A DNA stretch of 53,811 bases from Planctomycetota bacterium (GTDB lineage: Bacteria > Planctomycetota > Planctomycetia > Gemmatales > Gemmataceae), in assembly GCA_016191165.1 (NCBI GenBank), contig JACPPF010000159.1:1-53811 (forward strand). The letters are read 5' to 3'. The notes below the pieces were generated by a model. The model saw only the letters and a program-made list of their open reading frames with translations, did no database searches and was not told the DNA's origin. This document shows positions 41,615-53,792 of this stretch, piece by piece (positions within the stretch are counted from its first letter, which is position 1; the number at the start of each line of letters is the position of its first letter). A program made the translations under genes and the position numbers.

Positions 41615-42133
41615 ATGCGCCAACCATTTTCTGAGAACGCAAACTATCGCTCGGAGATTCGCGCGATTCTGCGCTTGCATCGGCTTTGGTTGGCCGGCAA
41701 GGGCGAATCAGCGGAAGCCGACGCCTTGCGCGACGCGACCGATGGTCATTGGGAACTCTTGTCGGAATTCGAGCGCAAGCGCATCCGAGGGCTTTCCGAG
41801 GACTTGAATTCGCTCGAAAGCCAACTGCCGGACCAAGCAGCGACCGAGATCAGTGCGCAAGCCTGTAGGAAGCTCCCTGAGTCCTATGCGGCACGTCAGC
41901 TAGGCGAGTGGGATCGGGCATTGGAAATCCTGCGCATGTGCGAAAACGCTGCGCCGCTGGCCCTGATCTCCTATTTGCGAGGCTCAATCTGGCTAGAAGC
42001 CGGAGACCCTGAAGTGGCAAGCGTTTTCATCGAACACGCTACCCGTCTCGAACCGGACAGTTCTAGCTATCGCGCGCTGGTTCTGAGCACTCCAACGACC
42101 CCCGAGCAGCCAATCGGCGCAAACATTACGTAA
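41615..42133 (+). CDS. Unknown helical protein coupled to the restriction gene
   Basis: The protein is 172 aa. It is all-helical, with TPR-like character in the second half (LGEWDRALEILRMCENAAP, YLRGSIWLEAGDPEVASVFI, HATRLEPDSSSYRALV). The first half includes EIRAILRLHRLWLAGKGES. Its stop (TAA 42131-42133) overlaps a possible ATG of the MmeI-like gene, so translation could be coupled. The preferred start is ATG 41615; a TTG at 41609 is also possible. A role as partner or immunity protein is inference. Confidence 0.6.
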   Translation: MRQPFSENANYRSEIRAILRLHRLWLAGKGESAEADALRDATDGHWELLSEFERKRIRGLSEDLNSLESQLPDQAATEISAQACRKLPESYAARQLGEWDRALEILRMCENAAPLALISYLRGSIWLEAGDPEVASVFIEHATRLEPDSSSYRALVLSTPTTPEQPIGANIT

Positions 42134-42150
42134 TGAGGTTTGCTCTGCCC

Positions 42151-43167
42151 ATGCAGTCCACCACCCAGAAAATCAAGGAATTCACCGCATTTGCGGCCAC
42201 CCTCCAGGGCGACGAGAAAGGCGAATCGCAGATCTTCCTCGACCGCCTCTTTCAAGCCTTCGGCCACGCCGGCGTGATCGAAACCGGCGGCGAGTTCGAA
42301 TACCGCGTCCGCTGGAACAACACCACCAAGCTCGCCGACCTTGTTTGGCCGAAACGCGTCTTGATCGAGATGAAAAAACGCGGCGAGAAGCTGCAAAAAC
42401 ACTATCTTCAAGCGCGCGATTACTGGATGAACCTGACGATGGATCGCGCCCGCTACGTCATCCAGTGCAACTTCGACGAGTTCTGGATCTACGACTTCGA
42501 TCACCAGATGAACGAGCCGGTAGACCGCGTACCGCTGACCGATTTGGCGACGCGCTACACCGCCCTCAACTTTCTGTTCCCCGAGGCCAAGGACCCGCAG
42601 TTCAAGAACGATCTCGTCGCCGTCACGCGCAAGGCGGCCCAGAAAGTCGCGGACGCCTTCAATTTGCTGATCAAGCCGGACCGCCCCAAGCAAACGATTC
42701 CGCGCGACCGCGCCCAGCGCTTCATCCTGCAATGCGTCGTCGCCCTCTTTGCCGAGGACATCGAGCTGTTGCCGCGCGGCTTCTTCACGGAGCTTCTCAA
42801 CGATTGCAAGAAACCCGGCGGCAGCTCCTACGATCTGCTCGGCGGCCTGTTTCGGCAGATGGCGAACAAGGACCCGGCCGGCGGCGGACGCTTTCAAGAG
42901 GTGCGCTACTTCAACGGCGGCATCTTCAACGTCGTCGAGCCGGTCGATTTGACGATCTCCGAGCTGACCCTCATGGCCGAGGCCGCCGTCGAGAACTGGG
43001 CCAAGATCGATCCCGCCATCTTCGGCACCCTCTTCGTCGGCAGCATGGACCCGAAGGAACGCCATGCCCTCGGCGTTCACGTCAACAGCCAAATGGCTTG
43101 CGGAAGCTGTTGCATTTCGGATAATGACCCCTACAGGCCGGTGTGTCTTCAACAATTGTCAAGATGA
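42151..43167 (+). pseudogene. MmeI-like (type IIL) restriction-modification protein, N-terminal part only
   Basis: The product is 338 aa. It carries the MmeI-type nuclease core D63-x9-E73-M-K75 (LADLVWPKRVLIEMKKRGEK), the following YLQARDYWMNL, and the helical spacer to MDPKERHALGVHVNSQ, where the methyltransferase domain should begin. From about 43085 the sequence is unrelated (MACGSCC... to the stop at 43165-43167). The missing methyltransferase and target-recognition core is replaced by the genes at 43180 and 44119, and the family C-terminus resumes at 44840. The ATG at 42151 is preferred (GAGG upstream); 42133 is possible. The nuclease residues are intact, so the product may be stable. 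Activity without its methyltransferase is doubtful. Confidence 0.8.
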
Positions 43168-43179
43168 CGAGAAGTTATC

Positions 43180-44103
43180 ATGGCTCACCAATTTCTTTTT
43201 CCTAATGAAACCCTTATACCGGCAAATAACATTCCCCATCCGATTCCCTACCAGGGAAGCAAACGGAACCTTGCGACGGACATTCTCTCCTATTGTCCAC
43301 CTAAAATAGGTCGGCTCGTTGAGCCGTTTGCTGGATCAGCTGCAATTTCGTTGGCGGCGGCATCTTGCGACCGCGCGCAAGAATTCTGGATCAATGACGC
43401 TCACAAGCCTCTCATCGATCTCTGGCTGGAAATCATCGAACGTCCCGACCAATTGTCGGACAAATACGAATCATTGTGGAAAAATCAGCTTGGGCGGGAA
43501 CGCGAGTACTACGACGTGGTGCGTTCTAAGTTCAACAAAACGCATCAATCCGAATGTTTCCTTTACTTACTTGCTCGCTGCGTCAAGGCAGCCATCCGGT
43601 ACAACTCAAGCGGTGGGTTCAATAACAGTCCAGACAACCGCCGCAAGGGAGCGACGCCGGAAACCATGCGCCAGCGCATCACCGGGGCGTCGCAGTTGCT
43701 TCGACACCGCACCAAGGTGACTTCTCTTGATTACAAGGATGTCCTCCTTGGATGCACTCGCGACGACCTGATTTACATGGACCCTCCGTACCAAGGTGTC
43801 TGCGGCAGTCGCGACAATCGATATTTGCCGAAAATCGACCATGACGGATTTTGCGAAACGCTGCGCGGATTGAACAAAAAAGAATGCCTGTATCTTGTCA
43901 GTTACGATGGACGAACTGGCACAAAGACATTCGGGAAGCGTCTCCCGGATCATCTCGAATTGGTTCACCTTGAAATCCACGCCGGCCGATCCACGCAGGC
44001 GACTTTGCTGGGCAGGAACGATGATACTTACGAATCCCTATACCTTTCTCCGGGCCTTGTCAAATTGATGGGACTTGACCGAAAAGCAAAAAAAACACAT
44101 TAA
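43180..44103 (+). CDS. Dam-type adenine-N6 DNA methyltransferase (D12 class)
   Basis: The enzyme is 307 aa. It methylates adenine in a short DNA site using S-adenosylmethionine. The N-terminal PIPYQGSKRNLATDIL is the D12-class start, LVEPFAGSAAISLA the SAM-binding motif, and LIYMDPPYQGVCGS the catalytic DPPY (D201-Y204). The extra N-terminal 20 residues and the central NSSGGFNNSPDNRR region are usual for this class. The surrounding DNA looks more AT-rich than the flanks, so recent transfer is likely. Just downstream is an HNH endonuclease on the same strand, so the pair is probably a complete restriction-modification module. The target site cannot be read from sequence. Confidence 0.9.
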   Translation: MAHQFLFPNETLIPANNIPHPIPYQGSKRNLATDILSYCPPKIGRLVEPFAGSAAISLAAASCDRAQEFWINDAHKPLIDLWLEIIERPDQLSDKYESLWKNQLGREREYYDVVRSKFNKTHQSECFLYLLARCVKAAIRYNSSGGFNNSPDNRRKGATPETMRQRITGASQLLRHRTKVTSLDYKDVLLGCTRDDLIYMDPPYQGVCGSRDNRYLPKIDHDGFCETLRGLNKKECLYLVSYDGRTGTKTFGKRLPDHLELVHLEIHAGRSTQATLLGRNDDTYESLYLSPGLVKLMGLDRKAKKTH

Positions 44104-44118
44104 TCGAGCCGCGACGCT

Positions 44119-44838
44119 ATGGCCGAGAAGCTGCCAAAAGAGTTCTTGAAAAAACTGAGGGCCGTTACCGGAAAACGCCCCAAGACGGTCATCGACCACA
44201 TCCTTGAACACGGATTCATCACGACGGAGGAACTCAGGGATATTTACGGATACGGCCATCCTCCGCGCGCCGTCAAAGACGTGACCGACCTGGGAATTCC
44301 AATCGAGCGATTCAAGGCCAAAGGAAAAGATGGGCGGACAATTGCCGCCTATCGCTTTGGTGATCCATCCAACGTGCGAGGCCTGGGGCATGCTGGCCGC
44401 GTGATCTTTCCAAAGAAATTCAAGAGCGTGCTCATTGAGAAATACGGAAGCAAATGCGCGATTTGTTCTGGAGAATTCGCGGCGTCCTTCCTCCAGATCG
44501 ATCATCGAATCCCTTATGAGGTCGCCGGCCAAGCCGAAGGCGAGCTTAATCCCGATGACTACATGCTCGTTTGCCGCTCATGCAACTGCGCCAAGTCATG
44601 GTCGTGTGAACACTGTCCCAATGGAATGATCGACAAGAAACCAGAGGTTTGCCAAACGTGCTATTGGGCACATCCAGAAAATTATCAGCACATCGCGACA
44701 CAGCAAGTTCGTCGAATTGATCTCGTTTGGAAGGACCAGGAGGTGAAAGAGCACGATCAACTCTCGGAATTCGCCAAAAGTATGAAGGCGGAGTTGCCTG
44801 AATACGTTAAAGCAATCCTTCGCAGACATCTGAAGTGA
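44119..44838 (+). CDS. HNH endonuclease paired with the Dam-type methylase
   Basis: The protein is 239 aa. The N-terminal part (about 20-85) looks like a winged helix (VIDHILEHGFITTEELRDIY). The HNH nuclease has C113-AI-C116, IDHRIPYE with the catalytic His129, and C152-RS-C155 followed by Asn156. Further Cys pairs (C163/C166, C178/C181) suggest a second zinc site. It begins 15 bases after the methylase stop, so it is probably co-transcribed as the restriction partner of that methylase. Its stop is directly followed by the resumed C-terminus of the interrupted MmeI-like gene. Confidence 0.85.
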   Translation: MAEKLPKEFLKKLRAVTGKRPKTVIDHILEHGFITTEELRDIYGYGHPPRAVKDVTDLGIPIERFKAKGKDGRTIAAYRFGDPSNVRGLGHAGRVIFPKKFKSVLIEKYGSKCAICSGEFAASFLQIDHRIPYEVAGQAEGELNPDDYMLVCRSCNCAKSWSCEHCPNGMIDKKPEVCQTCYWAHPENYQHIATQQVRRIDLVWKDQEVKEHDQLSEFAKSMKAELPEYVKAILRRHLK

Positions 44839-44839
44839 C

Positions 44840-45250
44840 GACGATTTCCGCTACACCTCCGACACCGTCTTCGACACCTTCCCCTGGCCGCAAGCCCCAA
44901 CCTTGGCCCAGGCGAAACAAGTGGCGAAAGCGGCCGTGGCGCTGCGTGAATTGCGGCGCAAAGTGATGGCCGAGAATCGCTGGAGCCTGCGCGATCTGTA
45001 TCGCACGCTCGATTTGCCGGGCAAGAACCCGCTGCGCGACATGCAGGACGCCCTCGATGACACGGTGCGCTCCGCCTACAGTATGAAGGTGAAAGCCGAC
45101 CCGCTGGCGTTTCTGCTCGACTTGAACCATCAACTCGCCGCCGCCGAGAAAGCGGGCACGCCGATCGTCGGCCCCGGCCTGCCGCCGTGCGTGAAGGACG
45201 CGGCGGACTTCATCACGACCGATTGCGTGCAGGCGCCCCAATTGCGGTAG
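44840..45250 (+). pseudogene. C-terminal part of the interrupted MmeI-like protein
   Basis: The frame open from 44840 reads DDFRYTSDTVFDTFPWPQAP, then VAKAAVALRELRRKVMAENR, WSLRDLYRTLDLPGKNPLRD and on to a TAG at 45248-45250. TFPWPQ and the following helices are typical of the extreme C-terminus of large type II (MmeI-like) enzymes. It has no start codon of its own; a TTG at 44903 is inside the domain. With 42151-43085 it brackets the inserted methylase/HNH pair. About 1.75 kb lies between the two halves, similar to the size of the missing core, so the insertion replaced rather than only split the gene. Confidence 0.75.
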
Positions 45251-45893: not shown

Positions 45894-46166
45894 ATGAACC
45901 ACCTTGCCGCCATTCGGCAGATTTTGGCGCAGCACGGGCGCCTGTCCGTGAACGTCGATACGCTGAACGACGACAGCGATCTTTACGTGGCTGGCCTGAC
46001 CTCCCTGGCAACCGTGGGCGTGATGCTGGCGTTGGAAGATCAGTTCAATATCGAGTTTCCAGAGTCGATGTTAAGCCGCCGGACCTTTGCAAGTCTGGAC
46101 GCGATCGCTGAAGCGGTCGATGAACTGGCGACTCCATCCTCCTCCAAGGTTCCGGTGGGCACATGA
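45894..46166 (+). CDS. Acyl-carrier-type protein (amino acid carrier)
   Basis: The protein is 90 aa. It has a four-helix carrier fold. The phosphopantetheine Ser is S37 in YVAGLTSLATVGVMLALED; the usual Asp before it is Thr. In operons of this type the carrier is loaded with an amino acid by the ligase two genes downstream rather than with a fatty acid. It is the first gene of six that overlap or nearly touch. Its stop overlaps the next ATG by 4 bases. No phosphopantetheinyl transferase is encoded in the window. Confidence 0.88.
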   Translation: MNHLAAIRQILAQHGRLSVNVDTLNDDSDLYVAGLTSLATVGVMLALEDQFNIEFPESMLSRRTFASLDAIAEAVDELATPSSSKVPVGT

Positions 46167-47359
46167 ACGAGTCCGAGACGCTTCCCGCGGGCGCGCCGAA
46201 GCCGATCTTCGACCGCCTGGTAAACGAGGCTCACGCGATCGGCAAGGAGGTGCTCGCCGCGAACGCCGCCGACGTGGATCGCCTTGCGCGCTTTCCCAAC
46301 GAATCAATCGACGCCCTGCGCCGGGCCAGGCTCTTGAGCGCCTATGTGCCAAAAGCATTTGGCGGCATGGGGCTCAACGTCGTTCAGATCGCCAAGGTTT
46401 GCGAAGTGTTTGGGCAATACTGCGGCTCCTCGGCGATGATCTACGCCATGCACAAGATCCAGGTCGCCTGCGTCGTGCATCACGCTCAAGGGTCGCCGTA
46501 TTTTCAGAGCTACCTGCGGCAGCTGGTGGACGAACAGCGCCTCATGGCGTCTGCAACGACCGAGATGGGCGTTGGCGGCGATCTGCGCTCCAGCATTTGC
46601 GCTGTGGAAGTCGAGGGAGATTCCTTTCGCCTGACGAAAAAGGCGCCCGTGATTTCCTACGGCGAGGCCGCGGATGACATCCTGATTACTTGCCGCAAAT
46701 CGCCAAACGCGCCTGCCAGCGAGCAGGTCCACGTGCTGGTTCGGCGGGGCGATTACACGGCCGAGCCGCTTTCGACCTGGGACACGCTGGGTTTTCGCGG
46801 CACGTGCAGCACGGGCTTCACAGTAACGTCGCACGGGAAGGCGGCGCAGATTCTGCCGACGCCGTTTGCCGACATTCTCGCCCAGACGATGCACCCGTTT
46901 TCGCACATCGTGTGGAGTTCGCTGTGGTCGGGCATCGCAATCGATGCGTTGAACCAGGCCCGCGCCTATGTGCGGACGGAGGCGCGCAAGACCCCGGGCG
47001 AGACGCCGCTCAACGCGATTCGGCTGGCCGAGGTCGATCGCGTTTTGCAAGAAATGCGCAACAATGTCGCCACTTTCACGCACGAGTATCACGACCTCCT
47101 CATGCACGCGCCGCGCGAAGCGCTGACCAGCTTTGGCTTTTCCATCCGCACGAATAATCTCAAACTTTCCGCCTCGCAGCTGATCGTCGATATCGTGGGC
47201 CGCGCGATGCTGATCTGCGGCATCTCCGGCTATCGCAACGACTCGAAGTACAGCATTGCCCGCCATCTGCGCGATGCCTACGGGGCGGCGTTAATGGTGA
47301 ACAACGACCGCATCATGAAACACAACGCGACCATGCTGCTGGTTCATAAGGAAGGATGA
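46163..47359 (+). CDS. Acyl-CoA-dehydrogenase-like flavoprotein
   Basis: The protein is 398 aa. The fold is visible from ALRRARLLSAYVPKAFGGMG, YCGSSAMIYAMHKIQVACV and SATTEMGVGGDLRSS to GFRGTCSTGFTV. The usual TEPxAGSD becomes TEMGVGGD, so the substrate pocket may differ. The C-terminal helical bundle includes LIVDIVGRAMLICGISGYRN and YSIARHLRDAYGAALMV. Relatives oxidise acyl groups on carrier proteins, as in pyrrole formation from a prolyl carrier protein. Here it could oxidise the aminoacyl carrier product. It overlaps both neighbours by 4 bases. Confidence 0.88.
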   Translation: MNESETLPAGAPKPIFDRLVNEAHAIGKEVLAANAADVDRLARFPNESIDALRRARLLSAYVPKAFGGMGLNVVQIAKVCEVFGQYCGSSAMIYAMHKIQVACVVHHAQGSPYFQSYLRQLVDEQRLMASATTEMGVGGDLRSSICAVEVEGDSFRLTKKAPVISYGEAADDILITCRKSPNAPASEQVHVLVRRGDYTAEPLSTWDTLGFRGTCSTGFTVTSHGKAAQILPTPFADILAQTMHPFSHIVWSSLWSGIAIDALNQARAYVRTEARKTPGETPLNAIRLAEVDRVLQEMRNNVATFTHEYHDLLMHAPREALTSFGFSIRTNNLKLSASQLIVDIVGRAMLICGISGYRNDSKYSIARHLRDAYGAALMVNNDRIMKHNATMLLVHKEG

Positions 47360-48291
47360 TGTCAATGACCTTGACCGAAGATCCCGTCGCTGCCGCTCAC
47401 CAGCGCTACCTCGACGAGCTGACCGCCGCGGGATTGCTTATTCCGCTCGGCGTGCCCGGCGTTTATGGCCGTAGCGGCGTGTTCGAGGGAATCGTGGAAC
47501 ACTTCGAGCGTTTCATCACGCGGATGGGCGATCACTTGAAGCCGGAGGTGATGCGTTTTCCGCCGGTGTTTGCGCGACAACATTATTGCTGCATCGACCA
47601 CGTCGAGAATTTTCCGAACCTGATGGGCTCGGTCCACACGTTCAAGGGGGGCGAGCGCGAACACCTGGCCCTGTTGAACAAAAAAGCCGAGGGAGGCGAC
47701 TGGTCGCGCAACCTGGACGCGAGCGACGTGATGCTGGTCCCGGCTGCCTGCTATCCGCTCTATCCGACCGCGACCGGAACGTTGCCGAAGAAGGGTCGCA
47801 TCGTGGATCTGGTCGGCTTCGTATTTCGGCATGAACCCTCGATCGACCCGGCCCGCATGCAGCAGTTTCGCCAGCGCGAGTACGTTTGCCTCGGCACGGC
47901 CGAGCAAGCGCTGGAACATCGCGATTATTGGCTCAAACGTGCCGAGCAGATGTTGTTGTCGGTCGGCTTGGATGTCAAGCCGGTGGTGGCGAACGACCCG
48001 TTCTTCGGCCGCGGTGGACGCATGATGGCCGCGACGCAGAAGGAACAGACGCTGAAGTTTGAATTGATGGCGCCCGTGGCCTCGACGGAAAAATGGACCG
48101 CGATCACGTCATGCAATTGCCATCTCGACCATTTCGGCCAGGTGTTTGACATCAAGACCGCGGACGGGCGGGTGGCTCACAGCGCGTGCATCGGCTTCGG
48201 CCTCGAACGCATCGCGCTGGCTCTGCTTCGCAAGCATGGCTTCGATCCCAACGCCTGGCCGGCCGACGTCAAGCGGGAACTGGCGCTATGA
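47356..48291 (+). CDS. Amino acid:[carrier protein] ligase (SerRS-like)
   Basis: The enzyme is 311 aa. It has the class II aminoacyl-tRNA-synthetase core but no tRNA-binding coiled-coil domain. Motif 2 is FVFRHEPSIDPARMQQFRQ and motif 3 is CIGFGLERIALALL. C132, E175 and C278 match the positions of the zinc ligands described for Bradyrhizobium Bll0957. Such enzymes activate glycine or alanine with ATP and pass it to the phosphopantetheine arm of a carrier protein, here encoded at 45894. The ATG at 47356 overlaps the preceding stop; 47359 and 47365 are alternative starts. Confidence 0.9.
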   Translation: MMSMTLTEDPVAAAHQRYLDELTAAGLLIPLGVPGVYGRSGVFEGIVEHFERFITRMGDHLKPEVMRFPPVFARQHYCCIDHVENFPNLMGSVHTFKGGEREHLALLNKKAEGGDWSRNLDASDVMLVPAACYPLYPTATGTLPKKGRIVDLVGFVFRHEPSIDPARMQQFRQREYVCLGTAEQALEHRDYWLKRAEQMLLSVGLDVKPVVANDPFFGRGGRMMAATQKEQTLKFELMAPVASTEKWTAITSCNCHLDHFGQVFDIKTADGRVAHSACIGFGLERIALALLRKHGFDPNAWPADVKRELAL

Positions 48292-49259
48292 TGAAACAAC
48301 TCCTCCAACTCGACCCGGCCCGGTACGAGCGGCATCCGATCCATCGTGGCGAGCGCGACTGGGCGGAGACAAACTGCTACGTCGATATCTGGATCGAACT
48401 ACTGCATGCATGGGGTTGCGAGCCGATTGCCGCGCTGCCCTTCACCTTCGGCATCGATTTCGAGGGCGACCAATGGACTTTTTTCAAATTTCCGCATGGC
48501 GACCTGTTCGATCTGTATCGTCTTGACGTTCAGGAGCTGGCGATCTGGCGTCCGCTCGCTACCCACGTCGAGGAGCAGGTCGAACTGGGCAGGCCGGTTC
48601 TGGTGGAACTGGATTCGTTCTACCTTCCCGACACGGCTGGCACAGCGTATCAGATCGCTCATGTGAAATCGACGGTTGCCATCGTCGAGATTGACACGGC
48701 AGCTCAGCACCTCGGCTACTTTCATGGGCAGGGGTACTACCGTCTGAATGGCGCCGACTTCGTCAACGTCTTGCGTGTGAACGACCGGAACCCGGCCCTG
48801 TTGCCGCCGTACGTGGAGATTGTCAAAAGGAGACGCGAAGCCCCGCCGCGCGGCGCCGACCTGGTGGCGGTATCGCTGTCCATACTACGGCGTCAACTGG
48901 AACGCCTGCCCGATGAAAACCCTTTTGAAAAGTTCAAGGCTCGCTTTCAGACGGATTTGACCTGGCTCGTGAATGAATCGCTGGAGGCTTTCCACAGCTA
49001 TTCCTTTGCAACCCTGCGGCAATTCGGCGCCTGTTTCGAACAATCAGCCACCTACTTGCGCTGGCTGCGCGAGCGAACGGACAGGCCGCTCGATCGAGCC
49101 ATCACCGCGTTTGCCGAGCTTTCGAGTGGCGCCAAGACGATGCAGTTTCACCTGGCGCGCATGATCGCACGCAAGAAGTCGCTCGAGCTGGCGCCCCTCG
49201 ACCAGATGGCGGTCAAATGGGCGACCGGGATGAATGAGTTGAAAGCGATCTACGCATGA
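48288..49259 (+). CDS. DUF1839 protein, possible papain-fold acyltransferase
   Basis: The protein is 323 aa. DUF1839 proteins are found with amino acid:[carrier protein] ligases. The N-terminal NCYVDIWIELLHAWGCEP (Cys30), GIDFEGDQWTFFKFP and YQIAHVKSTVAIVEID (His125, Asp136), followed by a GYFHGQGYY segment, recall the Cys-His-Asp layout of papain-like C39/BtrH acyltransferases. BtrH moves an aminoacyl group from a carrier protein onto an aminoglycoside. The resemblance is my reading of the sequence, not an established fact. The C-terminal half is helical. The start codon overlaps the ligase stop (ATGATG). Confidence 0.8.
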   Translation: MMKQLLQLDPARYERHPIHRGERDWAETNCYVDIWIELLHAWGCEPIAALPFTFGIDFEGDQWTFFKFPHGDLFDLYRLDVQELAIWRPLATHVEEQVELGRPVLVELDSFYLPDTAGTAYQIAHVKSTVAIVEIDTAAQHLGYFHGQGYYRLNGADFVNVLRVNDRNPALLPPYVEIVKRRREAPPRGADLVAVSLSILRRQLERLPDENPFEKFKARFQTDLTWLVNESLEAFHSYSFATLRQFGACFEQSATYLRWLRERTDRPLDRAITAFAELSSGAKTMQFHLARMIARKKSLELAPLDQMAVKWATGMNELKAIYA

Positions 49260-51781
49260 TCCCCCTGCCGGATTTCGCTGATGCTCCCGGCGCCGACATT
49301 CTGTTCGGCCCGTGGTCCTTTTGCGCCTCCTCACCCGGAGCAATCGATCATCCCGACCAAATCCGCCAGAGCGGGCTCACCTGGCAACCTGCTCTTGTGC
49401 CGGGAACCGTCGCGTCCAGTTTGCAAGCCCTTGGTCAATGGGATCTATCGCAACCTCTTGACGCCGACGCGAAAGATTGGTGGTATCGAACCGCCTTTGA
49501 TCTGAATTCCGACGAGCGTTCTGCGAATGCCGCCCTGTGCTTCGACGGCCTGGCAACCCTGGCCGAGGTTTGGCTCAACGGAACCAAAATCCTTACTACC
49601 GACAACATGTTCCGTTCTCATCGCGTCAACGTCGCTCAATACCTGCGGGACCATAACGAGCTTGCGATTGGCTTTCGTTCCTTGACGACGTTCCTCGAAA
49701 CCCGGCGCGCCCGGCCGCGCTGGAAAACCAATCTCGTCAAGCATCAACAAATGCGCTGGTGTCGAACCAGCCTTTTGGGACGAATTCCAGGATGGACGCC
49801 CCCCGTCACACCCGCTGGTCCCTGGCGCGCCATTCGGCTGGAGCGCGGGCCGATCGTGGTTTCCGATGTTCATGTCACGAGCGTTCTGGAGGGCGATGTT
49901 GGCGTCGTGAGCGTTCATGCGGTGGTCCAATCGGATACGTCGCTGGAATGCGCGAGCCTCCAGGTTGGCGAAGCGGTCGTTCCGCTTGAAATCCAAGCGG
50001 CGGATCATGGTCGGCATCTCGTCGGCGCCATGCAGGTCGCCAACCCGCCGCTCTGGTGGCCGCACACGCATGGTGCGCAGCCGCTTCTCGATGCCGTCCT
50101 GAGCATTGACACGAACGGCGCGCGGCTTCGCCATCCGTGTGGCAAGATTGGTTTTCGTCGCCTGGAGGTCGATCGCCAAATCGGGTTCGGCGTAAAAGTC
50201 AACGGCGTGCCCATCTTTTGCCGCGGCGCCTGTTGGACGGTCGCCGACATCGTGACCCTGGATGGCTCGCCCGAACAGCTGTCTCACGATTTACACCATG
50301 CGCGCGCCGCCGGCGTCAACATGCTGCGCGTTGGCGGGACCATGATCTATGAGTCAGACCATTTCTATGATCTGTGCGATCAACTGGGCATTCTCGTGTG
50401 GCAGGACTTCATGTTCGCCAACATGGACTATCCCGTCGAAGACGCTGCGTTTGCCGCCAACATCGTGGAAGAAGGCAGGCAACAGCTTCGGCGCTTGGCC
50501 AGACACCCGGCCGTTGCTGTCTATTGTGGCAACAGCGAGGTGGAACAACAGGCCTCCATGCTCGGCATGCCGCGCGAGCTTTGGCGGAATGGCTTCTTTG
50601 CCGAACGACTACCAGCCCTGTGCGCCGCCGATCACCCTGCGGCCGAGTATCTTCCTTCCACGCCCAGTGGTGGCACGTTGCCGTTCCACGTCGCCAGCGG
50701 CGTGACGCATTATTATGGCGTTGGCGCCTACCTGCGCCCGGTGAGCGACGTGCGGCGCGCGAACGTGAAATTCACGTCGGAATGCCTCGGCTTCGCCAAC
50801 GTCCCGGAACCCGAAACGGTCAACCACGTCGTCGGCGGCGGGCCGGTCATGCTGCATCACCCACGCTGGAAGCAGCGTGTGCCGCGCGACACCGGCGCGG
50901 GCTGGGATTTCGAGGATGTGCGCGACCACTACCTCAAACAACTTTTCGGCGTCGATCCCGTCCATCTTCGCTCGTTTGATCCCGATCGTTACCTGCGTCT
51001 TAGCCGGGTCGTAACCGGCGAGGTGATGGCGCAGGTTTTCGCCGAATGGCGCAGCGGTCATTCGAACAATCGAGGCGCGCTGGTGTGGTTCTTCAAGGAC
51101 CTTTGGCCCGGGGCAGGGTGGGGCATCGTCGATAGTCTCGGCATCCCCAAGGCCGCCTACTATTTCCTCAAGCGAAGTTGGCAGAGCCATCAAGTTCTGT
51201 TGACCGATGAAGGTCTCGATGGGTTGCACATTCACGTCATCAATGAATCGGCAATGGCCTGGAACGGTTTCGTCGAGATCATGCTGCTCAGGGACGATCA
51301 CGTGGTGGTCGCGCGGGCGGAAACGTCCTGCGAACTGCGGCCCCATTCGCAAATTACAGTGGAGTCGGACGCGTTGCTCGGCGGGTTTTATGATGTGTGC
51401 CACGCCTACCGCTTCGGGCCACCCAAACACGAAGTCGCAATTGCCACGCTTTATGACGCGGAAAGGCGCGTCATCAGTGAGGCGTTCCATTTCGTGCAGG
51501 CACGCGAGCCCTCGATGCTTGCGGCCGTGGAGATTCAGGCCGACGCGGAGCCTAGCGGCGAGGGCGGCTGGGAGGTCACCCTTCAGTCGAATCGCTTTCT
51601 TCGTGGGGTTGCCTTGGATGCCAAAGGCCTTTTGCCGGATGATAATTACTTCAACCTGGCTCCAATGCGACCCAGGAAAATCTCGTTGCGGGCGCTGGCC
51701 CGGGGCGCGGTGAAACTCGCGGCTTACGTGGAGGCTTTGAACTTGCGCGATCCGGTGCGGATCGCCGTGAGAAAACCCTAG
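49256..51781 (+). CDS. GH2 beta-mannosidase-like glycoside hydrolase
   Basis: The protein is 841 aa. A jelly-roll N-terminus (TWQPALVPGTVASSLQALG, WWYRTAFDLN, AEVWLNGTKI) leads into an immunoglobulin-like linker and a TIM barrel. The proposed acid/base E428 lies in CGNSEVEQ, the nucleophile E509 in VKFTSECLGFANVP, with GVNMLRVGGTMIYES before them. Both catalytic Glu are present, so it is probably active. There is no signal peptide, so it acts in the cytoplasm, unlike usual polysaccharide-degrading members. It overlaps DUF1839 by 4 bases and precedes the double hydrolase by 9. Confidence 0.85.
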   Translation: MIPLPDFADAPGADILFGPWSFCASSPGAIDHPDQIRQSGLTWQPALVPGTVASSLQALGQWDLSQPLDADAKDWWYRTAFDLNSDERSANAALCFDGLATLAEVWLNGTKILTTDNMFRSHRVNVAQYLRDHNELAIGFRSLTTFLETRRARPRWKTNLVKHQQMRWCRTSLLGRIPGWTPPVTPAGPWRAIRLERGPIVVSDVHVTSVLEGDVGVVSVHAVVQSDTSLECASLQVGEAVVPLEIQAADHGRHLVGAMQVANPPLWWPHTHGAQPLLDAVLSIDTNGARLRHPCGKIGFRRLEVDRQIGFGVKVNGVPIFCRGACWTVADIVTLDGSPEQLSHDLHHARAAGVNMLRVGGTMIYESDHFYDLCDQLGILVWQDFMFANMDYPVEDAAFAANIVEEGRQQLRRLARHPAVAVYCGNSEVEQQASMLGMPRELWRNGFFAERLPALCAADHPAAEYLPSTPSGGTLPFHVASGVTHYYGVGAYLRPVSDVRRANVKFTSECLGFANVPEPETVNHVVGGGPVMLHHPRWKQRVPRDTGAGWDFEDVRDHYLKQLFGVDPVHLRSFDPDRYLRLSRVVTGEVMAQVFAEWRSGHSNNRGALVWFFKDLWPGAGWGIVDSLGIPKAAYYFLKRSWQSHQVLLTDEGLDGLHIHVINESAMAWNGFVEIMLLRDDHVVVARAETSCELRPHSQITVESDALLGGFYDVCHAYRFGPPKHEVAIATLYDAERRVISEAFHFVQAREPSMLAAVEIQADAEPSGEGGWEVTLQSNRFLRGVALDAKGLLPDDNYFNLAPMRPRKISLRALARGAVKLAAYVEALNLRDPVRIAVRKP

Positions 51782-51790
51782 ATTCTCATC

Positions 51791-53641
51791 ATGTCCAACC
51801 TTGTGCTCAATCATGATCATGTTGTGCCCGTCGGCGTTGAGGCGTCCGACGGCCCCGTGACGCGCCTCGCGTTTTACGTGACGAGCCGGGGCCGTTCGCT
51901 GTTTGTCTGGCATCATCATGCTGCGCAAGAGCGACAACAAGATCACGCGGTGTTGATCTGTGCGCCCGCGGGCCACGAGCAGGTCCATTCTCATCGCTCG
52001 TTGCGACATCTCGCCGATCAACTTGCTGGCGTGGGTTTCCGTGTCGTCCGTTTCGATTTTCTGGGCGCCGGCGACTCCGCGGACTTCGTCGAATCGGCGT
52101 CACCGTATGCGGATTGGCTGGCGAATATCCAGGATGTGCTGGGCTGGATGAAGAGGCATTTGAAGAGCAAGCGGGTCAGCCTCATGGGCCTGCGTCTGGG
52201 CGCGACCCTGGCCATGCAGGCGGCCGCTGAGGTCGAGATCGAGAACATGGTTCTTTGGCAGCCAATCGTGCGTGGCCGAGCTTACGCGCGCGAACTCAAA
52301 GCGTTGAGCATGATCGGCGTCGCGGCGCCCCGTGCGAGCCCACCGGCCGCAGGGCTAGAAGCCGCCGGATTTGTTTATTCCAATGGGCTTCTTGACGAAC
52401 TGGGCCAGGTGGACCTATTGAAGATTTCACCGCGATGTGCTCGGGCCCTGATTCTGTCACGCGACGACGTTGCCTCGGACCTGGGCCTGTTCAATCATTT
52501 TCAAGCCAACTTGGTAGAGGTCGAGCACGGGCCGCTCCCGGGTTATGCGGACATGCTGGCGGAGCCGCATTTTACGCAAATTCCACATCAGGCAATCGCG
52601 GCCACGATGAACTGGCTGAGGCGAACGGACGGCTCCGATTCCGATCGGCTCCATCGGATCGAAGGTACGGCAGAGGATTCAAATGCCGAACCGCGTTCCG
52701 CGTTGATGGCCCCAGGCGTTTGCGAACGTGCCGTCACGATCAGCAAGACGCCAAGACTATTCGGCATCCTGAGCGAGCCGGTGCAGCACGCCGATTTGCC
52801 GGTGGTGATCCTGTCCAACGCTGGGGCGGCCTATCGGGCGGGTCCGGGCCGGCTTTACGTGATGTTGTCGAGGCGCCTGGCGACGTTGGGTTTTTGCTGC
52901 CTACGCCTGGATCTGGCCGGCCTGGGCGATAGCGTTTCCGTTGACGAGAAACGCGAGAACGACTCCTACCCCGCGACGGCGTTTCGCGACATCGACCTGG
53001 CGATCAAATTCGTCCAACACAACCTGGGCGTCAGGCGCGTCGTCGTCATGGGCTTGTGTTCCGGCGCCTATGTGGCATTTCAATCGGCTGGCCAAGTGAC
53101 CGACCCCGCGCTGATCGAGGCGATTCTCGTCAATCCGTTGACGTTTTTCTGGAAAGACGGGATGAAAATCGAGGATTCCTCATCCAAACACCATAGCGAC
53201 TTTTTGTACTACAAAAGCGCGGCCCTTCAGCCTCGGAATTGGTTGAAACTGCTTCGCGGCCAGACAAGCATTGGCATCGGCGGCGCTGTCAAATTGGTAG
53301 CGCGACAACTTGGCTTTCGAAAACCCCGTGTTGACGCGACGGGAGGAACCGACAAACCCCACGCCTTGGGCCATCCGGCTGTGGACGATCTCAACGGCGA
53401 CCTTGAGCGAGTGGAGGCGAAATCCCGCCACCTGGCGTGCTTCTTTTCACGCTCAGACCCAGGCTGGAGCCTGATGACGTATCAGGCCGGGCGAATGGTG
53501 AACAGACTTTGCGCCGCCGGTCGCTTGAGCGTGGATTTCATCGAGGACGCAGATCACACGTTTTCTCAGCAGCATGCGCGCGAGGAATTTCTGAATGCGG
53601 TGGCGAGGCACCTTACCAAACGGTACGTTGGAAGGGAATAA
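51791..53641 (+). CDS. Double alpha/beta-hydrolase, one domain without a nucleophile Ser
   Basis: The protein is 616 aa with two alpha/beta-hydrolase domains. Domain 1 (about 1-280) has the elbow MGLRLGATLAMQ, where the expected nucleophile is Arg135, so it is probably inactive. Domain 2 (about 310-616) has MGLCSGAYVAF, giving Cys423 as nucleophile, and late acidic and His residues (SRSDPGW, DADHTFSQQH). Both domains resemble the 'exosortase A system-associated' hydrolase pair, here fused. It may hydrolyse or transfer a thioester-bound product. The start at 51791 has no strong ribosome site and may be coupled to the gene before. Confidence 0.8.
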   Translation: MSNLVLNHDHVVPVGVEASDGPVTRLAFYVTSRGRSLFVWHHHAAQERQQDHAVLICAPAGHEQVHSHRSLRHLADQLAGVGFRVVRFDFLGAGDSADFVESASPYADWLANIQDVLGWMKRHLKSKRVSLMGLRLGATLAMQAAAEVEIENMVLWQPIVRGRAYARELKALSMIGVAAPRASPPAAGLEAAGFVYSNGLLDELGQVDLLKISPRCARALILSRDDVASDLGLFNHFQANLVEVEHGPLPGYADMLAEPHFTQIPHQAIAATMNWLRRTDGSDSDRLHRIEGTAEDSNAEPRSALMAPGVCERAVTISKTPRLFGILSEPVQHADLPVVILSNAGAAYRAGPGRLYVMLSRRLATLGFCCLRLDLAGLGDSVSVDEKRENDSYPATAFRDIDLAIKFVQHNLGVRRVVVMGLCSGAYVAFQSAGQVTDPALIEAILVNPLTFFWKDGMKIEDSSSKHHSDFLYYKSAALQPRNWLKLLRGQTSIGIGGAVKLVARQLGFRKPRVDATGGTDKPHALGHPAVDDLNGDLERVEAKSRHLACFFSRSDPGWSLMTYQAGRMVNRLCAAGRLSVDFIEDADHTFSQQHAREEFLNAVARHLTKRYVGRE

Positions 53642-53645
53642 GAGC

Positions 53646-53677
53646 AAAACCCCGCGGACTTGCGCCCGCGGGGTTTT
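53646..53677. terminator. Bidirectional intrinsic terminator
   Basis: A perfect 12-bp stem AAAACCCCGCGG/CCGCGGGGTTTT with an 8-base loop has T-runs on both strands. It lies 4 bases after the last stop of the operon and just beyond the 5S rRNA 3' end, so it serves both transcripts. Confidence 0.9.
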
Positions 53678-53683
53678 GAAAAA

Positions 53684-53792
53684 GCCGGCGATAACCTACT
53701 TTCGCGCTATTCGCACTATCATGGGCCCCAAGTGCTTAACGGCCGTGTTCGGAATGGGAACGGGTGTGTCCACTTGGGTATGGTCACCGGCA
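53684..53792 (-). rRNA. rrf: 5S ribosomal RNA
   Basis: Read on the minus strand it starts TGCCGGTGACCATACCCAAG and contains the conserved core CCCGTTCCCATTCCGAACAC. It ends in CGCCGGC, pairing GCCGG at the 5' end with CCGGC at the 3' end to close helix I. About 108 bases. It is the last gene of an rRNA operon whose 23S and 16S would lie beyond the right edge. Confidence 0.95.

What the first reader, a model, noticed from the sequence alone, without database searches (positions are those of the whole stretch)
45894..53641. Six-gene amino acid:[carrier protein] operon with an undefined product
Carrier protein, acyl-CoA-dehydrogenase-like protein, SerRS-like ligase, DUF1839, GH2 enzyme and a double alpha/beta-hydrolase are joined by four 4-base overlaps and one 9-base gap, which points to a single pathway. 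Known: SerRS-like enzymes of this kind load Gly or Ala on carrier proteins. Inference: the flavoprotein oxidises the loaded amino acid, DUF1839 transfers it to an acceptor, and the GH2 enzyme and hydrolase process a sugar-bearing product. No NRPS, PKS, exporter or regulator is present, so the product is probably a small intracellular conjugate.
Basis: partly seen in the sequence, partly recalled or inferred. Interest (0 to 1): 0.85.

Follow-up and report, generated by a model that had tools for sequence, protein, structure and literature searches.

The report
Amino-acid carrier operon for biofilm polysaccharide
A tight six-gene set that loads an amino acid onto a small carrier protein and passes it on recurs in the same order across about ten bacterial phyla, and in Burkholderia it sits inside a biofilm-polysaccharide locus, which gives a testable role to a class of ligase whose purpose is reported as unknown.

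Summary
In detail: six co-directional genes (45894-53641), four 4-base overlaps, one 9-base gap, ending in a perfect 13-bp hairpin before a 5S rRNA gene. The same order recurs in dozens of genomes from about ten phyla, so it is a real unit. The ligase is a bona fide amino acid:[carrier protein] ligase. Where it is missing, a stand-alone amino-acid adenylation enzyme sometimes lies nearby (3 of 7 loci). DUF1839 folds like CcbD and CtaG, enzymes that move carrier-bound acyl groups onto amines (an amino sugar for CcbD), so "transferase" is well supported. The "small intracellular conjugate" is not. In B. cenocepacia the genes lie between Crp-like and BerB-like regulators beside the bep exopolysaccharide cluster, and the hydrolase gene lies inside it. 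In B. pseudomallei a transposon in the likely flavoprotein gene (becG, matched by annotation) lowers biofilm. In Rhizobium the hydrolase is fused to a polysaccharide flippase. I propose a carrier-protein module that adds an amino-acid-derived group to an exopolysaccharide or its precursor. The amino acid, flavoprotein reaction, acceptor and GH2 role remain unknown. The published Bep structure used NaOH extraction, which would strip ester-linked groups.

The parts
45894..46166 (+). Carrier protein (90 aa), phosphopantetheine site Ser37 in GLTS
   Evidence: PF00550 E 5e-8; NF005480 110 bits, cut-off 72; Ser37 in 84 of 84 relatives
46163..47359 (+). Acyl-CoA-dehydrogenase-fold flavoprotein (398 aa), substrate unknown
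   Evidence: PF02771, PF00441; solved relatives include dehydrogenases and nitrososynthase-type enzymes such as DnmZ; His248 invariant in 88 of 88, Val/Ile at the MCAD Glu376 position
47356..48291 (+). Amino acid:[carrier protein] ligase, SerRS-like (311 aa)
   Evidence: NF005479 above cut-off; Bll0957 (3mey, 4h2w) E ~1e-73; Cys132, Glu175, Cys278 conserved
48288..49259 (+). DUF1839, papain-like acyltransferase of CcbD/CtaG fold; Cys29, Thr128, His145 (numbered from the ATG at 48291)
   Evidence: PF08893 E 5e-118; AF2 pLDDT 94.9; CcbD Z 19.4, CtaG Z 17.0; C29 92/93, T128 90/93, H145 93/93; triad type from PMC10318531
49256..51781 (+). GH2 enzyme, beta-mannosidase-like; no signal peptide seen by eye; acid/base Glu428, nucleophile Glu509
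   Evidence: PF22666, PF17753; 5n6u beta-mannosidase E 2e-90 over nearly the full length; E428 69/75, E509 75/75
51791..53641 (+). Double alpha/beta-hydrolase: N-domain with Arg instead of the nucleophile (GLRLG, R135), C-domain with Cys nucleophile (GLCSG, C423; H589, D556)
   Evidence: TIGR03101-like N half, TIGR03100-like C half, both below cut-off; R135 52/54, C423 54/54, H589 54/54, D556 51/54
53645..53678 (+). Perfect 13-bp inverted repeat with T-run (8-base loop), likely terminator of the operon
   Evidence: read directly from the sequence: CAAAACCCCGCGG ... CCGCGGGGTTTTG

Best explanation
The operon is a soluble carrier-protein-dependent acyl-transfer module for cell-surface polysaccharide. 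The SerRS-like ligase activates a small alpha-amino acid with ATP and loads it on the phosphopantetheine arm of the carrier (supported by homology). The flavoprotein then modifies the amino-acyl thioester (inferred; dehydrogenation or oxygenation). DUF1839 takes the group onto Cys29 and passes it to an amino or hydroxyl group of a sugar, as CcbD does with an amino sugar (fold shown, activity inferred). The double hydrolase, with a dead N-domain and a Cys-Asp-His C-domain, acts as a second acyltransferase or a proofreading thioesterase near the lipid-linked sugar (inferred from the flippase fusion). GH2 trims or remodels a cytoplasmic sugar intermediate (inferred, weakest). The product feeds a biofilm exopolysaccharide in Burkholderia and probably elsewhere.
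For: Order conserved in about ten phyla. Ligase absent in seven loci; three of them (L021, L040, L082) have a stand-alone amino-acid adenylation enzyme 0.1-4 kb from the operon, above the TIGR01733 cut-off, with Asp at the amino-binding position. PPTase gene clustered with the module, nearly always next to the ACP, in 14 loci. DUF1839 fold: CcbD, AziU3/U2, CtaG at Z 16-19, next unrelated 8.6; CcbD moves carrier-bound proline onto an amino sugar by a Cys ping-pong route (PMC12945683). B. cenocepacia: two Crp-like genes, [ACP, ACAD, ligase, DUF1839, GH2], BerB-like gene, then ManC, GTs, Wzc, Wzx, GT and the double hydrolase, agreeing with berB=Bcam1342, berA=Bcam1349, Bcam1334=TIGR03100 hydrolase in the bep cluster (PMC9684580, PMC3584217). 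B. pseudomallei becG (acyl-CoA dehydrogenase) transposon mutant: biofilm 0.84 versus 1.25, smooth colonies (PMC5507470). Rhizobium: hydrolase fused to a flippase, GT4 genes adjacent. Initiating sugar transferase genes (PF02397) in flanks of 9 of 39 loci against 0.25 expected from the same genomes.
Against: No polysaccharide gene was recognised next to the operon in the window's own contig, and many relatives also lack one within 10 kb. Six of the nine PF02397 loci are related Acidimicrobiales, so the enrichment rests on about four lineages; flippase enrichment is weak (2 observed, 0.29 expected). The published Bep repeat has only sugars (PMC7084887), although NaOH extraction would remove esters. 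An amide on an amino sugar would survive NaOH, and Bep has no amino sugar, so an ester or a minor or terminal group is required there. The becG insertion may be polar on downstream genes, and its identity with this ACAD rests on annotation and synteny, not on a sequence compared here. DUF1839 has a swapped triad relative to CcbD.
Confidence: 0.55

Rival explanations
1. The operon makes a small diffusible or intracellular amino-acid-sugar conjugate, which only regulates or accompanies biofilm formation.
For: All six products look soluble and cytoplasmic; the closest folds to DUF1839 are antibiotic-pathway enzymes (CcbD, CtaG, AziU3); in the window no polysaccharide genes adjoin.
Against: Hydrolase gene inside the bep cluster and fused to a flippase in Rhizobium; no small-molecule exporter or resistance gene was seen among the flank clusters that were identified.
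Confidence: 0.25
2. The group is attached not to the repeat unit but to the lipid-linked starter or chain end, so that the module controls initiation, flipping or chain length rather than decorating the polymer.
For: Flippase-hydrolase fusion; initiating sugar transferase as the clearest enriched neighbour; Bep repeat without non-sugar groups.
Against: No direct evidence on the acceptor; many loci lack an adjacent initiating transferase.
Confidence: 0.15
3. A catabolic or salvage unit: GH2 and hydrolase break down an imported aminoacylated oligosaccharide and the ligase and carrier recycle the amino acid.
For: GH2 and hydrolase are formally hydrolases with mostly intact catalytic residues.
Against: ATP-dependent loading on a carrier is biosynthetic; association with synthesis and export genes.
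Confidence: 0.05

Closest known systems
Amino acid:[carrier protein] ligases (Bll0957 of Bradyrhizobium; Mocibob 2010, 2013)
   Same: Family above cut-off, presumed zinc ligands, neighbouring carrier
   Different: Their biological role is stated as unknown (PMC9437257); here the whole operon and a polysaccharide context are added
CcbD/LmbD lincosamide condensing enzymes and CtaG of closthioamide
   Same: Whole-length fold of DUF1839, nucleophilic Cys, carrier-bound acyl donor
   Different: No detectable sequence similarity; Thr and His exchanged in the triad; context is polysaccharide, not antibiotic
Dlt D-alanylation of teichoic acids
   Same: Works like it: amino acid, ligase, small carrier, transfer to a surface polymer; DltA-like adenylating enzymes stand in for the ligase in some loci
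   Different: No DltB or DltD in the operon; different ligase fold; soluble transferases; mostly Gram-negative hosts
Exosortase-A-associated ligase/ACP/hydrolase 1/hydrolase 2 set
   Same: The double hydrolase resembles TIGR03101 and TIGR03100 fused
   Different: Scores below both cut-offs; presence of an exosortase was not searched for
bep/bec biofilm exopolysaccharide loci of Burkholderia
   Same: Contain the operon and its hydrolase
   Different: Published work names the regulators, glycosyltransferases and export genes; the carrier-protein module was not described in the passages read

Membership tests
Amino acid:[carrier protein] ligase (NF005479) | Family profile above curated cut-off | tested here: met
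   441.7 bits, cut-off 357
Amino acid:[carrier protein] ligase (NF005479) | Zinc ligands Cys, Glu, Cys and no tRNA-binding domain | tested here: met
   C132 84/84, E175 81/84, C278 84/84; only 311 aa; that these are the zinc ligands is from my knowledge of Bll0957
Amino acid:[carrier protein] ligase (NF005479) | Loads Gly or Ala on the neighbouring carrier | not testable with these tools
   needs assay
CcbD/CtaG-type carrier-dependent acyltransferase | Papain-like core plus helical domain over the whole chain | tested here: met
   Z 19.4, 280 of 322 residues, rmsd 3.5
CcbD/CtaG-type carrier-dependent acyltransferase | Cys-His-Glu/Asp triad in that order | tested here: not met
   Cys29-Thr128-His145, swapped (PMC10318531)
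CcbD/CtaG-type carrier-dependent acyltransferase | Amide or ester formation with a carrier-bound donor | not testable with these tools
   needs assay
Acyl-CoA dehydrogenase | Catalytic Glu at the MCAD (376) or IVD (254) position | tested here: inconclusive
   Val/Ile379 and Ser247/His248 there by profile alignment, so apparently absent; register not checked on a structure
GH2 beta-mannosidase | Two catalytic Glu | tested here: met
   E428 69/75, E509 75/75
Exosortase-A hydrolases 1 and 2 (TIGR03100, TIGR03101) | Score above curated cut-off | tested here: not met
   130 of 168.45 and 101 of 202.75 bits
Dlt system | DltB and DltD present with the ligase and carrier | tested here: not met
   neither is in the operon
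Part of a Burkholderia bep/bec exopolysaccharide locus | Operon between Crp-like and BerB-like regulators beside the polysaccharide genes | tested here: met
   met in B. cenocepacia CMCC(B)23006; not so in the window itself

The most novel reading that the evidence does not exclude
A widespread, previously unrecognised counterpart of teichoic-acid D-alanylation: a soluble six-protein module that attaches a carrier-bound, flavoprotein-modified amino acid to biofilm exopolysaccharide or its lipid-linked precursor, through a DUF1839 transferase with a swapped triad.
Probability: 0.35. Interest if true: 0.85.

Novelty: new variant of a known kind. Interest (0 to 1): 0.7.

Why it matters
[quoted passage not shown] Placing the ligase and its partners in a biofilm-polysaccharide locus with existing mutants makes the question directly testable. 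It would also mean that published polysaccharide structures made after alkaline extraction may miss a labile group that affects matrix properties. The module occurs in plant-associated, soil and freshwater bacteria as well as in opportunistic pathogens.

Tried and rejected
Sequence search of DUF1839 against solved structures: nothing, or only chance Ras-type hits; the fold search was needed. Phage collection: no DUF1839. Fold search of the double hydrolase gave many ordinary esterases, no lead. Flippase enrichment was weak. Literature searches found no paper on the operon as a whole; the original 2010 ligase paper is not held. Considered and rejected: prophage or defence island; a housekeeping fatty-acid role (the ligase belongs to the amino-acid, not the fatty-acyl, class).
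Full report
OBSERVATION. The six genes are present exactly as described. The overlaps at 46163-46166, 47356-47359, 48288-48291 and 49256-49259 are all ATGA-type, and 9 bases separate GH2 from the hydrolase. A perfect 13-bp inverted repeat with a T-run (53645-53678) follows the last stop, then a 5S rRNA gene on the minus strand at 53683-53791. Families: PP-binding carrier, acyl-CoA-dehydrogenase-like flavoprotein, amino acid--[acyl-carrier-protein] ligase NF005479 above cut-off, DUF1839, GH2 with beta-mannosidase features, two alpha/beta-hydrolase domains. The genome is 7.2 Mb; DUF1839 occurs once in it and groups with Planctomycetota.

A REAL UNIT. With an eight-sequence DUF1839 profile one scan of genome contigs found 572 relatives, of which 80 were fetched. 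Profiles of all six proteins were mapped onto these loci. Thirty-seven show ACP-ACAD-ligase-DUF1839-GH2-hydrolase in this order with gaps under 700 bases; 16 more show the first five; seven lack the ligase; a Myxococcota/Gammaproteobacteria group has moved ACP and GH2. Hosts include Planctomycetota, Verrucomicrobiota, Acidobacteriota, Pseudomonadota, Myxococcota, Chloroflexota, Actinomycetota, Gemmatimonadota, Abditibacteriota and Bacillota (taxonomy as submitted, many are metagenome bins). Pairwise distances of the proteins correlate (r 0.55-0.89); with no species tree as a control this shows joint descent, not function. In 392 genomes of the window's own phylum only three have it, so it is patchy there. 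Annotated plasmids show the same order in Azospirillum, Mycetohabitans, Shinella (without the hydrolase) and Rhizobium.

THE PROTEINS. Residues were counted over the relatives. Carrier Ser37 is invariant. The ligase keeps Cys132, Glu175 (Asp in 3) and Cys278, matching the zinc site of the Bll0957 family (its structures 3mey and 4h2w hit at E ~1e-73; that these are the zinc ligands is from my knowledge of that work). DUF1839 keeps Cys29, Thr128 and His145. A published survey had assigned DUF1839 to the papain-like fold with a C(T/S)H triad and guessed at cell-wall glycan work (PMC10318531). The AlphaFold model is confident (pLDDT 94.9). Its best solved matches over the whole chain are CcbD (Z 19.4, 280 residues), AziU3/U2 (Z 18.1) and CtaG (Z 17.0); the next unrelated chain has Z 8.6. 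CcbD takes carrier-bound proline onto its Cys and then onto the amino group of a thio-octose sugar (PMC12945683). DUF1839 therefore very likely works like CcbD, though its triad is swapped, so I do not file it as a member. The double hydrolase has Arg in place of the N-domain nucleophile (52 of 54) and an invariant Cys with His and Asp in the C-domain, so only the C-domain can be catalytic, and a Cys there suggests thioester chemistry (inference). GH2 keeps both Glu in most members. The flavoprotein lacks Glu at both usual dehydrogenase positions by profile alignment and has an invariant His248; its nearest solved relatives include both dehydrogenases and nitrososynthases, so its reaction is open.

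AMINO ACID ON THE CARRIER. Of the seven loci without the SerRS-like ligase, L021, L040 and L082 carry a stand-alone amino-acid adenylation enzyme near the operon, above the TIGR01733 cut-off and also similar to DltA; L039 has a more ordinary acyl-ligase; the other three have none within reach. The three enzymes have Asp at the position that binds the alpha-amino group. An unrelated enzyme of the same chemistry close by is independent support for amino-acid loading, but the identity of the amino acid is not known, and loading of this carrier by that enzyme is not shown. A phosphopantetheinyl transferase gene lies with the module, nearly always beside the ACP, in 14 loci.

THE POLYSACCHARIDE LINK. 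In Burkholderia cenocepacia CMCC(B)23006 the order is two Crp-like genes, ACP, ACAD, ligase, DUF1839, GH2, a sigma-54/VpsR regulator, then ManC, GT4, GT4, Wzc, GH5, Wzx, GT4 and a 595-aa double hydrolase that aligns with the window's (26% over 589 columns, E 6e-43). This agrees with the published bep region: Bcam1334 is the TIGR03100-type hydrolase, Bcam1335 a glycosyltransferase, Bcam1336 the flippase, Bcam1337-1338 glycosyltransferases, Bcam1340 ManC, Bcam1342 BerB and Bcam1349 BerA (PMC3584217, PMC9684580). Six gene numbers lie between BerB and BerA, and the sequence here shows five operon genes plus a Crp-like gene. Wzc lies elsewhere in this strain than in J2315, so the match is by family and near-order. 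In B. pseudomallei the homologous becA-R cluster was nearly saturated by biofilm-deficient transposon mutants, among them becG, an acyl-CoA dehydrogenase (biofilm 0.84 versus 1.25, smooth colonies; PMC5507470). That becG is this ACAD is inferred from annotation and order. In Rhizobium the hydrolase is the C-terminal part of a 1103-aa protein whose N-terminal part is a polysaccharide flippase, with GT4 genes on both sides. Cupriavidus has an initiating sugar transferase, PAP2, ManC and Wzc around the operon. Against the genomes' own totals, initiating sugar transferases lie in the flanks of 9 of 39 loci where 0.25 are expected. Six of the nine are Acidimicrobiales, so the Poisson value must not be read as independent evidence; about four lineages remain. 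Flippases: 2 against 0.29, weak.

WHY IT WAS NOT SEEN. The Bep repeat is Gal-Glc-Gal-Man with no substituent, but the polymer was extracted in 0.3 M NaOH and measured in NaOD (PMC7084887). Aminoacyl and other O-esters would not be expected to survive (established chemistry). An amide would, and Bep has no amino sugar, so the model requires an ester or a minor or terminal group there.

VERDICT. A real, widely conserved and largely uncharacterised module. The transferase fold and the polysaccharide setting are the new points. The small-conjugate reading is possible but less likely. Shown: anatomy, conservation, fold, neighbourhood. Inferred: amino acid, flavoprotein chemistry, acceptor, GH2 and hydrolase roles, and the carry-over from Burkholderia to the likely planctomycete of the window, whose contig ends 170 bases after the operon and shows no polysaccharide gene nearby (three initiating sugar transferases lie on other contigs).

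Noticed in passing
window 53683-53791: 5S rRNA gene on the minus strand directly after the operon's terminator; the contig ends there, probably at a collapsed rRNA repeat.
   Followed up: yes
window 42133-45250: A cluster that looks like a DNA adenine methylase (43180-44103), an HNH-type nuclease (44119-44838) and short ORFs just upstream, perhaps a phage or restriction island; judged from the translations only.
   Followed up: no
L006 10003-10926 (+) and 14758-15708 (-): Cupriavidus metallidurans CH34 carries two DUF1839 genes around one operon, one of them on the other strand near ManC.
   Followed up: no
L029 585-4876: A Kangiellaceae contig has, 3 kb upstream of its operon, an adenylation domain, a distant second ACAD and hydrolase fragments, as if a related second module were decaying or alternative.
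   Followed up: no
L048, L045, L068, L085: In a Myxococcota/Gammaproteobacteria group the ACP has moved behind DUF1839, close to GH2 and usually next to a PPTase.
   Followed up: partly
L005 4478-7304: The Rhizobium locus also has EF-P, EpmA (another tRNA-synthetase-like enzyme) and a lysine aminomutase-like gene directly upstream of the operon.
   Followed up: no
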